From Tetradesmus obliquus (Eukaryota > Chlorophyta > Chlorophyceae > Sphaeropleales > Scenedesmaceae), in the NCBI GenBank assembly GCA_030272155.1, contig CP126205.1, positions 1,538,501 to 1,602,500 on the forward strand: a stretch of DNA of 64,000 bases, in the 5' to 3' direction. Of the stretch, positions 1 to 64,000 are shown one piece after another (the first letter of the stretch is position 1; every line of letters begins with the position of its first letter). Made by a program: the position numbers and the translations under genes. The notes below the pieces were generated by a model. The model was not told where the DNA came from and did not search any database. It saw nothing but the letters and a program-made list of their open reading frames with translations.

Positions 1-1912
1 AGTGTCGTGTGCAGTGAGAGAAGAGGCAGGATGCTAGAAAGAGCTTGTGGTACTGACACAGCTTTTTCAACCAGTCACAGAACTTGCTGCAGGCAGGAAT
101 AGCAAGAACACCAGAAAGGTGAGACAAAAGAGACACGCCATGATGATGACGCTTGTGGTACTGGCGCAGCTCCTTCAAGCAGTCATAAAAACTGCTGCGA
201 GCATGGAAATATCATTTGACTGTGGGTGAGACAGAAAGCATGATGAGCAACGCATGCTTGTGATGGTTGCACAGCTCCTTCAGCTGGTCAAAGGGAATGT
301 GCTGCTGCTGCGCAGTGATGTACGACTGTGCTGTGCAATACAGCGCTGGCAGGTGGTGCTGGGGTCGGCCCTGCCAGCTGCTGCTGCTGCCAAAGCTGCA
401 GCAATTAGTGATGCTGCCGCTGCTGTTGCTGCTGCTGCTTCTGCTGCTGCTGCCCACCTGTACACTGCTGTGGGGTTACTGGCGCCCACACTGCTGCTGC
501 TGCTGCTGCTGTCGCTGCTACCGCTGCAGCTGCTACGGCTGCTGCTGCCCACCTGTACACTGCTGTCGGGTTGCTGGCGCCCAGCGCTGCAATCTCCTCC
601 TTGCGGTGCCGCGACTCCTCGCTGTCATCATCGTACACGCGCATCTGCGGCGGCAGCAGCAGCAGCAGCGGAATAAGAACGGCCGAACATCAGCTGTGAC
701 ATGCTGTATGCCAGTGCATGCACTGGTGCCGTGACTCCTCGCTCTCGGCATCGTACAAGCGCATCTGCAACAGCAACAACAGCAGCAGCAGCAGCGGAAG
801 AACAACGGCCGAACATCAGCTGTGACATGCTGTATGCCAGTGCATGCACTGGTGCTGCGACTCCTCGCTCTCGTCATCGTACGCATCGTCAGCAGCAGCA
901 GCAGCAGCAGCAGCAGCAAAATATAACTAGCCCAGGCAAAAAGAAATGTGCTCTGTGCCAGTGTATGTAGCAGTGAATGCCACATGCTGGGCCGCTACAG
1001 GAGTCACCTGCCAGGTGGTGTGATGATGCTCTGCTGCCAGCAGCGAAGTGTGTGCGACAACATCGCTGCTGCTGCTGCTGCTGCTGCTGCTGCTGCTACC
1101 ACTGCTGCTGCTACCGCTGCTGCTGCTCTTGTGCCTCCACAGTGCTGCCTGCTTGCTGCCTTTGCTACAGGCCTTGTGCAACCCAATCTCTGCCACACAG
1201 AGGCACCCGTTGCCATCACTGCCCCATACTCCCCTGTGCTGCTGTAACAGCTGCACCAACCAGTGTCACCAGCAAACTAACAACTACTAGCTAACCGCTG
1301 CACGTACCAGCTTGCGTGCTATGTGCTGCATCTCGTCCATGCGCTTGCGCACGCGGTGGCTCTGCAGCAGCTTGTCCTTGTGGCCTTTTGCCTCCTGCTG
1401 GTAGTCCTTCACAATAATGCGCTCCAGCCGCTCCAAATCCTCATGCAGACCTGTAGATACAGTTAGAAACATAACAGGCTACATAGAGCAAAGGGATTTG
1501 CAATTGGTGAATGCATGCTGGCTGGTGGCCTCCTGCTGGTAGTCCTTCACAATGATGCGCTCCAGCCGCTCCAGGTCCTCATGCAGACCTGTAGATACGT
1601 CCAACTATAGTTAGCCATTATGCGTATGCGGTTGATTTAGACATGCTGGGTGGTGGCATCTTGGTGGTGATGATGGAAGGCAAGGAAGACAGCAGTGCTG
1701 ACAGATGAGAGTGCTTGACAGCGCTGCTGCTGCGCAGGCCACAGTGGTGCATGCACGGCTGTATTTGGTGTGTATTCGTAAAGCTCATAGCACGGGCAGC
1801 CTGCTGTGAAACAGCTGAGGCAGGAATCAATGAGTGCTGCCTCCTGCTGCTGCTGGCGCTGCTGCCACAGCAGAAGCTCACTCCTGGTCTGCTCCAGGAA
1901 CGTACTCGCCAT
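1..1912 (-). CDS. SF3A3: Splicing factor 3A subunit 3 (SF3a60/SAP61/Prp9 family), N-terminal part, continues beyond left edge
   Basis: This encodes the start of the SF3a60 subunit of U2 snRNP, needed for prespliceosome assembly in the nucleus. Read on the minus strand, exon 1 (1912-1882) gives MASTFLEQTR, matching the MSSTLLEQTR start of plant SF3a60. Exon 2 (1450 to about 1306) gives HEDLERLERIIVKDYQQEA followed by a DKLLQSHRVRKRMDEMQ stretch. Exon 3 (644-553) gives RVYDDDSEES..KEEIAALG. Exon 4 lies below 200 and gives FYDCLKELRQYHKRH. Phases agree at the junctions I could fix. Only about the first 120 residues are present; the zinc-finger region lies outside the window. Exon 2, exon 3 and exon 4 each have extra diverged copies nearby (see repeats), so the true exon 4 copy is uncertain. 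Family assignment is firm from the order of four conserved blocks; exon ends after exon 3 are tentative. Confidence 0.8.
36..290 (-). repeat. Three diverged copies of SF3A3 exon 4 (LKELxxYHK segment)
   Basis: Minus-strand reading gives three related segments at about 255-290 (FDQLKELCNHHK), 137-198 (FYDCLKELRQYHKRH) and 36-76 (FCDWLKKLCQYHK). They have diverged by many substitutions but keep the same residue pattern. The middle copy is closest to the SF3a60 consensus and is taken as the functional exon. Confidence 0.6.
450..895 (-). repeat. Echoes of SF3A3 exon 3 on both sides of the parent exon
   Basis: The parent exon is 644-553. Its donor-side end (..TAVY plus GTGGGC) is copied at about 450-488, downstream in the sense direction. 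Its acceptor-side start is copied at about 722-770 and 852-892, upstream in the sense direction, inside a unit of about 127 bp that also carries intron sequence. CTG/CAG tracts separate the units. Confidence 0.65.
1529..1600 (-). repeat. Echo of SF3A3 exon 2 start
   Basis: About 70 bp repeat the acceptor and first 20 codons of exon 2 (HEDLERLERIIVKDYQQEA) with few changes. The copy lies between exon 1 and the full exon 2, upstream of the parent in the sense direction. Confidence 0.8.
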
Positions 1913-2493
1913 GAGGGCGAAGTAAAGTTAGCTAGAATGTCCCAGTAGTGCTTTTTCTTTCGCGATCGGTGTCGGGTATAAGGTGGGCAAGACAGCACTT
2001 GCTGCAGCAGACGAAGTGTGCACGTGTGTCCGATGTAAGATGAAAGGTATTAAGATTCTCATACTACATGCTTTCTTCGATCCAACTGGACGGCTTGTGA
2101 GCATGGCGGGAAGGGGGTTGCTGCTAGCTGCTGACAGTCACTTGGGGTTGTGCTGTCGTGCTGTCGATGATCTGCCGTTTCACCGCGATTCCTTTGTTGA
2201 ATGTTTGTTTAGACTTGAAAGCACGGCACCTTGACCGACCGACACATTGCAACAATCTCACTTTAGCAGGCTGTTGTTGCCCTTCACCCTGCCACTCTTT
2301 TGTTTGCTAGCAAAGGCCTTGCGGCCCTCTGTCACCTTTGGTTACATATGTAAGCCACCTGGCTGTTACAACCAAGTGATCAGCTGGCAGGGCTGCCAGC
2401 AGTGCGGGTACCTTCTACCTGCCTCGTGCTGCTATACAGCTGCTGCTCTCTGCCTACACCTGAGCTATCGTACCTCCCAGCACACTTAACAGC
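1913..2493. promoter_or_regulatory. Divergent intergenic region between SF3A3 and TAF8
   Basis: This 580 bp gap separates two divergently transcribed genes that both encode general nuclear factors, so it must hold both promoters and 5' UTRs. I see no clear TATA element or other recognisable motif. The role is inferred from gene orientation only. Confidence 0.4.
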
Positions 2494-63900: not shown

Positions 63901-64000
63901 TGCTGCATCTACACGCTTCGCAGGCTGGCTGGCGCGCTGCAGCTGCAGCGCAAATTCAAGCTGGAGGGCGAGGAGTACCGCAAGCTGACTGGGCACTACT
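60947..64000 (+). CDS. Gamma-glutamylcyclotransferase-like protein with signal peptide, continues beyond right edge
   Basis: I model five exons, the last open at the window edge: 60947-61099, 61489-61686, 62691-62816, 63281-63459 and 63924-64000. MSLLRIFLGALAVLACAEAS is a likely signal peptide. It is followed by FYIFGYGSLLHEGSRIR, the glycine-rich substrate loop of the gamma-glutamylcyclotransferase (GGCT/AIG2) fold. VTGIRRAWN, TFLGATVAGNEFIATGVVYKVTEE and PIVQSYVDIW match conserved positions of that fold. Classical members release 5-oxoproline from gamma-glutamyl peptides. The catalytic glutamate cannot be placed with confidence, so the reaction is unproven. An exported member would be unusual. 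Four junctions are echoed inside its introns. Confidence 0.75.
61760..62240 (+). repeat. Four echoes of GGCT-like exon 2 donor end
   Basis: The end of exon 2 (GVRAKALQ coding, GGCCAAGGCACTGCAG then GTGGG) recurs at about 61775, 61905, 62030 and 62165. Each copy is followed by the same CAGGACAGCAGCTGCA flank. All lie downstream of the parent. Confidence 0.93.
62450..62640 (+). repeat. Two echoes of GGCT-like exon 3 start
   Basis: CAG plus the GGSFSTSAF coding start recurs at about 62508-62548 and 62592-62632. Each soon runs into a stop. Both lie upstream of the true exon at 62691. Confidence 0.93.
62874..62946 (+). repeat. Echo of GGCT-like exon 3 donor end
   Basis: The GNEFIAxxxxxKVTxEQYNKQ coding end and GTGGGTG donor are repeated about 125 bp downstream with several substitutions. 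Confidence 0.93.
63530..63595 (+). repeat. Echo of GGCT-like exon 4 donor end
   Basis: The LAIATPEFPIVQSYVDIW coding end and GTGAGTGG donor are repeated with two or three base changes, 75 bp beyond the parent and separated by a CAG/CGG tract. Confidence 0.95.

What the first reader, a model, noticed from the sequence alone, without database searches (positions are those of the whole stretch)
1..64000. Junction echoes: a window-wide pattern of tandem copies of exon-intron borders with strict polarity
Nearly every gene with introns carries diverged copies of its own splice junctions. Exon 3' ends with their GT donors are copied only downstream of the parent exon. Intron 3' ends with their AG and the next exon's first codons are copied only upstream of it. 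Last exons are copied after the stop. I found over thirty arrays in ten of eleven genes on both strands and no clear exception. Copies differ by substitutions and grow shorter or more diverged with distance, so they accumulated over time. Tandem duplication of AG/GT-containing exon segments is an established model for intron gain. A process that repeatedly targets existing junctions and enlarges introns is, to my knowledge, not a described genome-wide habit. Candidate causes are junction-targeted slippage, R-loop or repair errors near splice sites, or selection for decoy sites.
Basis: partly seen in the sequence, partly recalled or inferred. Interest (0 to 1): 0.92.

Follow-up and report, generated by a model that had tools for sequence, protein, structure and literature searches.

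The report
Algal introns keep exon-edge copies
In the genome of the green alga Tetradesmus obliquus, about half of the introns examined hold degenerate tandem copies of the neighbouring exon's edge together with its splice site, and the exon part of each copy stays alike while the surrounding intron drifts away, so exon borders seem to feed and lengthen introns in a way that can now be tested.

Summary
The window is Tetradesmus obliquus, contig C15. In 12 hand-modelled genes, donor-side exon ends recur in the downstream intron at 15 of 52 junctions and in the upstream intron at 0 of 40; acceptor-side exon starts recur upstream at 15 of 52 and downstream at 0 of 40. I curated 40 arrays with 68 copies, in 26 of 52 introns and some 3' flanks. 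In an independent 200 kb from all 17 contigs, 39 of 70 arrays look the same, on 12 contigs.

The strict polarity is a geometric consequence of tandem duplication across a border, not evidence for a junction-targeting process. Other facts tell more. Similarity is about 0.9 on the exon side and at the splice dinucleotide, then falls to about 0.68 (shuffled 0.55) from the seventh intron base, also between two echoes. Among arrays with spacing 60-600, 38 touch modelled exons and none lies wholly in a modelled intron, although short-unit intronic repeats exist. In one nine-copy array, exon and intron parts have unrelated histories.

Best reading: border-crossing tandem duplications whose exon part is re-copied from the selected parent exon. 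Echoes kept as working splice sites, and junction-targeted duplication, remain open. No RNA data were available.

The parts
454..583 (-). gene A exon 644-553: donor-side echo (junction 458)
605..890 (-). gene A exon 644-553: acceptor-side echoes (junctions 764, 890)
1390..1598 (-). gene A exon 1450-1308: acceptor-side echo (junction 1588)
8551..8975 (+). SnoaL-like gene 1, exon 8511-8623: three donor-side echoes (8742, 8855, 8967)
9240..9427 (+). SnoaL-like gene 1, exon 9374-9583: acceptor-side echo (9245)
12364..12559 (+). SnoaL-like gene 2, exon 12321-12433: weak donor-side echo (12559), below the search threshold
   Evidence: score 35
12885..13157 (+). SnoaL-like gene 2: copy of last-exon end after the stop
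13762..23871 (+). beta-mannosidase gene, 16 exons, host of 11 curated arrays
   Evidence: 15 of 15 junctions agree with P0070
14435..14754 (+). mannosidase exon 2 donor-side echo (14664): exon part 89/91 identical, intron part strongly diverged; a further partial copy near 14725 was not curated
14814..15050 (+). mannosidase exon 3 acceptor-side echo (14851)
15437..15706 (+). mannosidase exon 4 acceptor-side echo (15443)
16019..16215 (+). mannosidase exon 5 acceptor-side echo (16028; AG lost)
18084..18500 (+). mannosidase exon 7 acceptor-side echoes (18277, AG lost; 18102)
18547..18896 (+). mannosidase exon 7 donor-side echoes (18766, 18888)
19264..19606 (+). mannosidase exon 8 donor-side echo (19470); a second copy ending near 19606 with its GT lost was not curated
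20624..20966 (+). mannosidase exon 11 acceptor-side echoes (20769, 20655)
21378..21558 (+). mannosidase exon 12 donor-side echo (21556)
22173..22392 (+). mannosidase exon 14 acceptor-side echo (22178)
23786..24228 (+). mannosidase last exon: three copies after the stop
26898..27191 (-). DUF4079 gene exon 27233-27145: donor-side echoes (27032, 26914)
27205..27371 (-). DUF4079 gene exon 27233-27145: acceptor-side echo (27368)
28016..28148 (-). DUF4079 gene exon 28203-28124: weak donor-side echo (28016), below the search threshold
   Evidence: (score 33)
31489..32271 (-). coiled-coil gene: copy of last-exon end after the stop at 31925
34694..34870 (-). coiled-coil gene exon 35030-34836: donor-side echo (34707)
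36203..36378 (-). coiled-coil gene exon 36475-36335: donor-side echo (36221)
40621..40812 (+). AIP2-like RING gene exon 4 (40762-41042): acceptor-side echo (40637)
41001..42620 (+). AIP2-like exon 4: eight donor-side echoes (41216 to 42615); exon and intron parts have discordant histories
42783..43348 (+). AIP2-like exon 5 (43318-43421): three acceptor-side echoes (43231, 43141, 43051); a further short copy at 42788 was not curated
44556..44763 (-). glycosyltransferase: copy of last-exon end after the stop at 44711
44845..44931 (-). glycosyltransferase last exon: weak acceptor-side echo (44931), below the search threshold
   Evidence: score 35
45321..45550 (-). glycosyltransferase exon 6 donor-side echo (45375-45321), donor lost; left out of the curated 40
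45557..46452 (-). glycosyltransferase exon 6 (45630-45483): three acceptor-side echoes (45923, 46216, 46449), 293-bp units
46703..47460 (-). glycosyltransferase exon 5 (47534-47338): three donor-side echoes (47092, 46842, 46737)
48520..49031 (-). glycosyltransferase exon 3: acceptor-side echoes (48869, 48993)
49129..49559 (-). glycosyltransferase exon 2: donor-side echoes (49318, 49132)
49562..50077 (-). glycosyltransferase exon 2: acceptor-side echoes (49818, 50064)
52295..52662 (+). second glycosyltransferase exon 52090-52347: weak donor-side echo
56844..57073 (+). gene at 55-57 kb, exon 56573-56904: donor-side echo (57035)
61661..62254 (+). gene at 61-64 kb, exon 61489-61686: donor-side echoes (61798, 61929; 62191 doubtful)
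62449..62717 (+). gene at 61-64 kb, exon 62691-62816: acceptor-side echoes (62601, 62514)
62751..62957 (+). same exon: donor-side echo (62941)
63405..63593 (+). gene at 61-64 kb, exon 63281-63459: donor-side echo (63583)

Best explanation
Segments of roughly 90-300 bp that straddle an exon-intron border (or the stop codon) have been duplicated in tandem throughout this genome. The copy continuous with the exon remains the working border; the other becomes an echo in the intron, which is why polarity is strict (this step follows from geometry). Later the intron-derived half of each unit drifts without constraint. The exon-derived half, with the few intronic bases of the splice consensus, is repeatedly re-copied by local recombination (gene conversion or unequal exchange) from the parent exon or from sister echoes, because selection on the parent keeps that block as the only lasting homology (inferred; direct support in one nine-copy array). 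Arrays that include an exon piece therefore persist and expand, arrays wholly inside introns fade, and introns grow longer.
For: Tandem origin: the intron part next to the first echo scores above the best of 10 shuffles in 29 of 33 arrays tested this way, and at least 1.5 times that score in 25 of 33 (7 arrays with longer periods had no shuffle). No copy on the wrong side: 0 of 40 and 0 of 40. Exon-limited similarity: exon side 0.92-0.89 over 30 bp, splice dinucleotide 0.90, intron positions 7-36 0.66-0.68 against 0.54-0.55 shuffled; in pairs of two echoes 0.88-0.89 against 0.61-0.70. Exon side higher in 31 of 36 parent-echo pairs (2 reversed, p=8e-7) and 25 of 27 echo-echo pairs (1 reversed, p=1e-5). 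Unlinked histories: in the AIP2-like array, exon-part and intron-part distances among nine copies are uncorrelated (rho 0.04, permutation p 0.44); echo 6 is 0.076 from echoes 1 and 3 in its intron part but 0.034 from echo 4 in its exon part. Elsewhere: exon parts of 82 and 54 bp with 0 differences while similarity extends only 5 bp into the intron. A fresh short-unit duplication wholly inside an intron exists (36070-36150), as persistence rather than targeting would allow. Introns with echoes have median 482 bp, without 274 bp (p=1e-7; partly circular because the copies themselves add length).
Against: Re-copying was shown directly in one array only. Third-codon excess between parent and echo (25, 35 and 93 changes at positions 1, 2 and 3 in 40 sampled calls) is more than a neutral echo with a constrained parent predicts by my estimate; it needs standing allelic variation or past selection on the echo. 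Window echo acceptors with diverged flanks keep a T-rich tract, which passive decay does not predict. Two of the 40 sampled calls have the whole unit alike (similarity extends a full period into the intron: L018 3779/3650, L019 2253/2377), so some junction duplications are recent or wholly homogenised. That persistence alone can give 38:0 was argued, not simulated with re-copying.
Confidence: 0.5

Rival explanations
1. Echoes are kept by selection as splice-competent sites: alternative or poison exons, decoys, or splicing regulators.
For: 57 of 62 curated non-stop echoes keep GT or AG where ungapped exon-part identity predicts 47 (by eye, three further copies not curated keep 1 and lose 2). 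Intronic donor hexamer scores: parents 8.1, echoes that keep GT 7.0, other intronic GT -1.4. Ten window echoes whose upstream flank is at noise keep T content 0.40 at -25..-11, against 0.21 at other intronic GCAG (p=2e-5). In the 200 kb sample, nine such echoes have T 0.33 at -20..-5 against 0.21 at random AG (no test run), and AG is kept in 15 of 19, GT in 18 of 21.
Against: Some residual flank homology could hold composition; echo acceptors are less pyrimidine-rich than parents (p=0.01). A looser anchoring in the 200 kb sample showed no T enrichment at echoes (0.18 against 0.19), though its parents were doubtful too. Public proteins include none of the mannosidase or GT echoes. One glycosyltransferase echo carries a 1-base deletion. 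Exon parts vary at synonymous sites in the AIP2-like array.
Confidence: 0.2
2. Duplication itself is targeted to exon-intron borders, e.g. by breaks or R-loops near splice sites.
For: 38 exon-touching arrays and no intron-only array of period 60-600, against 36-47% exon-touching expected at random for units of 120-175 bp; a simulation of decay without re-copying expects about 45 intron-only arrays beside 38 (inflated by native repeats at high divergence).
Against: In the window, noncoding parts are detected alone only in arrays curated with two or more echoes, so a present-day mutational preference cannot be read there. Unit ends are scattered: exon parts 25 to 143 bp, leaving out one doubtful copy. 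Short-unit tandem repeats do arise wholly inside introns (36070-36150, 48706-48744, 55632-55687).
Confidence: 0.15
3. Unequal exchange between diverged haplotypes or hybrid parents: the echo comes from another functional allele, so both copies show coding constraint and working splice signals while introns differ.
For: Third-position excess in 40 sampled calls and in the window (103, 92 and 263 parent-echo differences at positions 1, 2 and 3, with repeated counting of parent changes); conserved splice consensus and T-rich tracts on both copies.
Against: Exon parts with 0 differences over 54 and 82 bp beside unrelated flanks do not fit one allelic age. A second T. obliquus record (P0070) differs from the mannosidase model at 20 of 1330 aligned residues, which suggests less divergence than many parent-echo pairs.
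Confidence: 0.1
4. Plain neutral tandem duplication seen through ascertainment: exons are constrained, so exon-echo pairs diverge half as fast.
For: Explains polarity and some parent-echo excess.
Against: Does not explain that echo-echo pairs are also conserved mainly in the exon part, the discordant histories, or 38:0.
Confidence: 0.05

Closest known systems
Tandem duplication across an intron-exon border in potato RdRp (Ma, Lan and Niu 2016, PMC4974935; abstract and Results section read)
   Same: A tandem duplication crossing the 3' end of an intron and the start of the next exon, with polypyrimidine tract and AG inherited from the parent border; an echo in the present sense.
   Different: One recent event in one gene that created a new spliced intron; here dozens of arrays, many of them old, on both donor and acceptor sides and after stops, with no evidence that new introns are spliced.
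[quoted passage not shown] passages read)
   Same: Local tandem duplication that supplies extra AG and GT sites.
   Different: The model makes a new intron inside an exon from exon-only DNA. Here existing introns are enlarged by units made of exon edge plus intron edge.
Tandemly duplicated, mutually exclusive exons (Dscam; PMC3236188, passages read)
   Same: Exon copies in tandem with their own splice signals.
   Different: Those are used exons that diverge in function, and the paper reports no gene conversion between them. Echoes are mostly partial exons, absent from the public proteins checked.
Concerted evolution of tandem repeats by gene conversion or unequal exchange (general knowledge; no dedicated paper read)
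   Same: Copies stay alike through exchange.
   Different: Similarity stops within a few bases of the splice junction.

Membership tests
Tandem genomic duplication (local, direct) | Adjacent direct copies with the whole unit repeated | tested here: met
   Intron parts beside first echoes score above the best of 10 shuffles in 29 of 33 arrays tested; in 8 of 33 they are absent or marginal
Intron gain by tandem duplication (Rogers model) | Duplicated exonic AGGT supplies donor and acceptor of a new intron | tested here: not met
   Echoes are flanked by intron sequence related to the parent's own intron edge in most tested arrays, and public proteins splice mannosidase and GT at the parent sites
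Intron gain by tandem duplication | New intron removed in mRNA | not testable with these tools
   No RNA reads held
Mutually exclusive or cassette exons | Complete exon with both splice sites, included in some mRNAs | tested here: inconclusive
   Most echoes keep one functional-looking site; outer ends of a part of the arrays inspected by eye, no consistent partner site; RNA not available
Concerted evolution by conversion or unequal exchange | Segments of one copy have discordant genealogies | tested here: met
   Tested in the AIP2-like array only
Junction-targeted mutational process | New duplications fall at borders more often than chance | tested here: inconclusive
   38:0 in standing arrays of period 60-600, but most first duplications in the window appear old and short-unit intronic repeats exist

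The most novel reading that the evidence does not exclude
Echoes are not debris but maintained splice-competent copies of exon borders: selection keeps their AG or GT, splice consensus and T-rich tract while the rest of the intron turns over, so that a large share of introns in this alga carries backup, decoy or poison splice sites made from its own exons.
Probability: 0.2. Interest if true: 0.92.

Novelty: new variant of a known kind. Interest (0 to 1): 0.74.

Why it matters
It gives a standing, sequence-readable record of how introns of one eukaryote lengthen: half of the modelled introns (26 of 52) carry exon-edge copies, and their median length is 482 against 274 bp. It supplies many natural intermediates for intron gain by duplication; the one border-crossing case I could read was a single gene. 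It also raises a sharp question about the spliceosome, which must ignore several near-identical donors or acceptors beside the real one. A practical effect: the public model of the AIP2-like gene lacks 64 residues of its RING region, at a place where the same acceptor sequence recurs in the parent exon and in echoes, so gene models of this alga may need checking at such arrays.

Tried and rejected
Polarity as evidence of mechanism: rejected, because tandem duplication across a border forces it. Plain ascertainment: rejected as sufficient. Codon-position excess as proof of coding selection on echoes: held back; the window counts count parent changes several times in multi-echo arrays, and the independent sample can also reflect allelic variation.

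Gene-model-free asymmetry tests in the 200 kb sample were mixed. Motif version: donor GTGAG 14 to 2, but all GTRMG donors 20 to 9 (p=0.06); one control motif (GAGTG, which overlaps GTGAGTG) gave 10 to 0; acceptor motifs disagreed (TTGCAG 5 to 13 as expected, CTGCAG 22 to 11 the other way). PWM version: donors 18 to 4 with reversed-PWM control 2 to 3; acceptors uninformative (16 to 18). In the window the same test gave donors 8 to 1 but its reversed control 6 to 0. Coding score of array cores did not differ significantly from random pieces of the same stretches (p=0.13), since those include exons. Anchoring on CAG alone was too loose: parents showed little pyrimidine tract and echoes no T enrichment. 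An automatic gene finder took echoes for exons and was not used for the models.

Dropped before counts: five weak echoes (62191, 52662, 12559, 28016, 44931), which removes 4 of 40 parent-echo and 1 of 28 echo-echo pairs and favours the exon side; the 36 kept pairs include 4 arrays at stop codons. In one search the 55-kb gene for lack of a frame. In some searches two of 72 arrays longer than 1200 bp. Not curated: the exon 6 donor echo of the glycosyltransferase, a GT-less copy near 19606, a short copy at 42788, partial copies, and a sub-threshold TAF8 match (score 37). The doubtful third exon of the 61-kb gene was removed.

Papers: ten searches. Their listings, two of which were cut, showed no description of this habit; the library lacks most subscription journals.
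Full report
Source. A search placed the window at C15:1538501-1602500 of a 104.7-Mb assembly in 17 contigs. C15 is 4,553,750 bases long, the length of the longest contig listed for public T. 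obliquus proteins P0001 and P0026. The species is a green alga of the Scenedesmaceae. A 2018 paper gives its introns as 462 bp on average and 15.7% of its genome as coding (PMC5966456, passages read); my 52 modelled introns average 462 bp.

Gene models. I modelled 12 genes by hand from open frames, splice consensus and homology: a beta-mannosidase, two SnoaL-like genes, an AIP2-like RING ligase, two glycosyltransferases, a DUF4079 membrane protein, a TAF8-like gene (named from memory), a coiled-coil gene and three others. Pfam supports RING, DUF4079 and glycosyltransferase (via P0026) above cut-off; SnoaL only below its cut-off. Public proteins agree at 15 of 15 mannosidase, 7 of 7 glycosyltransferase and 4 of 4 AIP2-like junctions, after I moved one glycosyltransferase donor to the public position. 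The other genes have no such check, and several are incomplete. The AIP2-like public model lacks 64 residues (model residues 241-305) and has no Pfam match, while my model has a RING; three proteins from other sources have that stretch.

The observation. With up to 60 bp of exon plus 6 bp of intron as query, copies of donor-side ends occur in the downstream intron at 15 of 52 junctions and in the upstream intron at 0 of 40; acceptor-side starts occur upstream at 15 of 52 and downstream at 0 of 40; ends of last modelled exons occur on the 3' side at 7 of 11 and upstream at 0 of 12. Curated, this is 40 arrays with 68 copies in 11 of 12 genes and 26 of 52 introns; self-BLAST arrays cover 41% of intron bases; introns with echoes have median 482 bp and those without 274 bp. 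Three curated arrays lie below the search threshold (scores 33-35).

Polarity. If a segment E|X (exon end, intron start) is duplicated in tandem the result is body-E|X-E|X. Only the first E is continuous with the exon, so the second is always downstream. The mirror image holds for exon starts, and the stop codon behaves like an exon end. Strict polarity therefore shows that copying is local and tandem and says nothing about targeting. The absence of copies on the wrong side argues against dispersed insertion.

Excess at exon edges. Of 43 self-similar clusters (period 60-600), 38 touch a modelled exon, none lies wholly within a modelled intron, and 5 lie in unannotated DNA. Random placement that avoids breaking exons gives 36-47% exon-touching for units of 120-175 bp. 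With exons and exon-derived parts masked, the remaining DNA reveals only 10 of the 38, all curated with two or more echoes. A simulation of decay without re-copying predicts roughly equal numbers of junction and intron-only arrays (its high-divergence points are inflated by native repeats). So something beyond parent constraint is at work: targeting, or selective persistence. Shorter units do occur wholly inside introns, one of them fresh (39 bp x 2.1, 100% alike, 36070-36150), which speaks for persistence but may be another process.

Where similarity stops. Anchored at the junction, 36 adjacent parent-echo pairs average 0.92, 0.90 and 0.89 identity over exon positions 1-10, 11-20 and 21-30, 0.90 at the splice dinucleotide, 0.83 at the next four bases, and 0.66-0.68 at intron positions 7-36, where shuffles give 0.54-0.55. 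For 27 pairs of two echoes, where neither is the working exon, the values are 0.88-0.89, 0.91, 0.83 and 0.61-0.70. A neutral echo should decay evenly on both sides of its own junction; these do not. Five weak echoes were dropped beforehand, which favours the exon side somewhat, and four stop-codon arrays are included.

Exchange. In the nine-copy AIP2-like array the intron parts fall into two families (parent, E2, E4, E7; E1, E3, E6) plus outliers E5 and E8. Exon-part distances do not follow them (Spearman 0.04, permutation p 0.44): E4 and E6 are 0.034 apart in the exon part and 0.282 in the intron part. The outermost echo E8 has no differences from the parent over 75 aligned bp but three in the last five bases before the junction, and its intron part is unrelated. 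Recombination within the exon part, or its re-copying, fits this; selection on independently evolving copies does not. In mannosidase exon 2, 89 of 91 exon bases agree, against 23 of 32 aligned bases of a 48-bp intron part. Not all arrays show the contrast: in the glycosyltransferase exon 6 array the intron part beside the first echo is more alike (212 of 219) than its exon part (64 of 74), as expected if the newest copy was made from an older echo.

Splice competence. Curated echoes keep GT or AG in 57 of 62 cases, against 47 expected from ungapped exon-part identity; three further copies seen by eye keep one and lose two. Echo acceptors whose flank is at noise (n=10) still have 0.40 T at -25..-11, against 0.21 at other intronic GCAG. 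Donor hexamers of echoes that keep GT score 7.0, parents 8.1, other intronic GT -1.4. This is the best support for a function. It is also what re-copying of the splice consensus and slow loss of composition would partly give.

Elsewhere in the genome. In 20 stretches of 10 kb from all 17 contigs, 72 arrays were found in 15 stretches. With splice PWM and coding score required only of the copy in the parent position and 25 of 30 exon matches, 40 echoes in 39 of 70 arrays on 12 contigs were called: AG kept in 15 of 19, GT in 18 of 21, exon side about 28 of 30 matches, intron side about 20.5 of 30. Exon parts have median 48 bp; the same extension rule enters the intron for a median of 8.5 bp; 25, 35 and 93 differences fall at codon positions 1, 2 and 3; two calls have the whole unit alike. 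A scan that selected one-sided pairs gave 31 of 70 arrays on 13 contigs, with the parent side more coding in 27 and less in 4. Model-free versions of the test gave mixed results, told in Tried and rejected. Whether intron-only arrays exist in this sample was not tested.

Judgement. The feature is real and widespread in this genome. The most economical account is border-crossing tandem duplication plus exchange confined to the block that selection keeps constant in the parent. Splice-site function and mutational targeting stay possible. The known relative is a single border-crossing duplication in potato (PMC4974935, abstract and Results read). Ten full-text searches (listed in Tried and rejected) showed no description of such a habit in their listings, in a library without most subscription journals.

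Noticed in passing
window 40762-43421: The public T. obliquus model of the AIP2-like gene (P0001) lacks 64 residues of the RING region; the acceptor it appears to use (CTGCAG before CCGTGG) also occurs in some echoes.
   Followed up: partly
window 58878-60143: About 139-bp array of some five copies in unannotated DNA, looks exon-like by eye but no parent exon was found.
   Followed up: no
window 8511-9583 and 12321-12976: Tandem pair of SnoaL-like genes; one donor-side echo of each shares variants absent from both parent exons (seen by eye), suggesting the echo is older than the gene duplication.
   Followed up: no
window 17587-17689: In-frame 36-bp coding repeats in the mannosidase; another T. 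obliquus record (P0070) lacks 12 residues in this part of the protein, so the repeat number seems to vary between records.
   Followed up: partly
window 36070-36150, 48706-48744, 55632-55687: Short-unit tandem repeats (39, 20 and 15 bp) wholly inside modelled introns, below the period cut-off of the main test.
   Followed up: no
window 44711-50620 and 52090-54310: Two related glycosyltransferase genes in opposite orientation.
   Followed up: no
L020 (C16:1000001-1010000), 1-3958 and 4086-6013: Long satellite-like arrays with smallest spacings of 274 and 351 bp, unlike the short echo arrays.
   Followed up: no
window 43-208: Unannotated cluster at the window edge that looks like an acceptor-side echo of an exon outside or at the edge of the window.
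   Followed up: no
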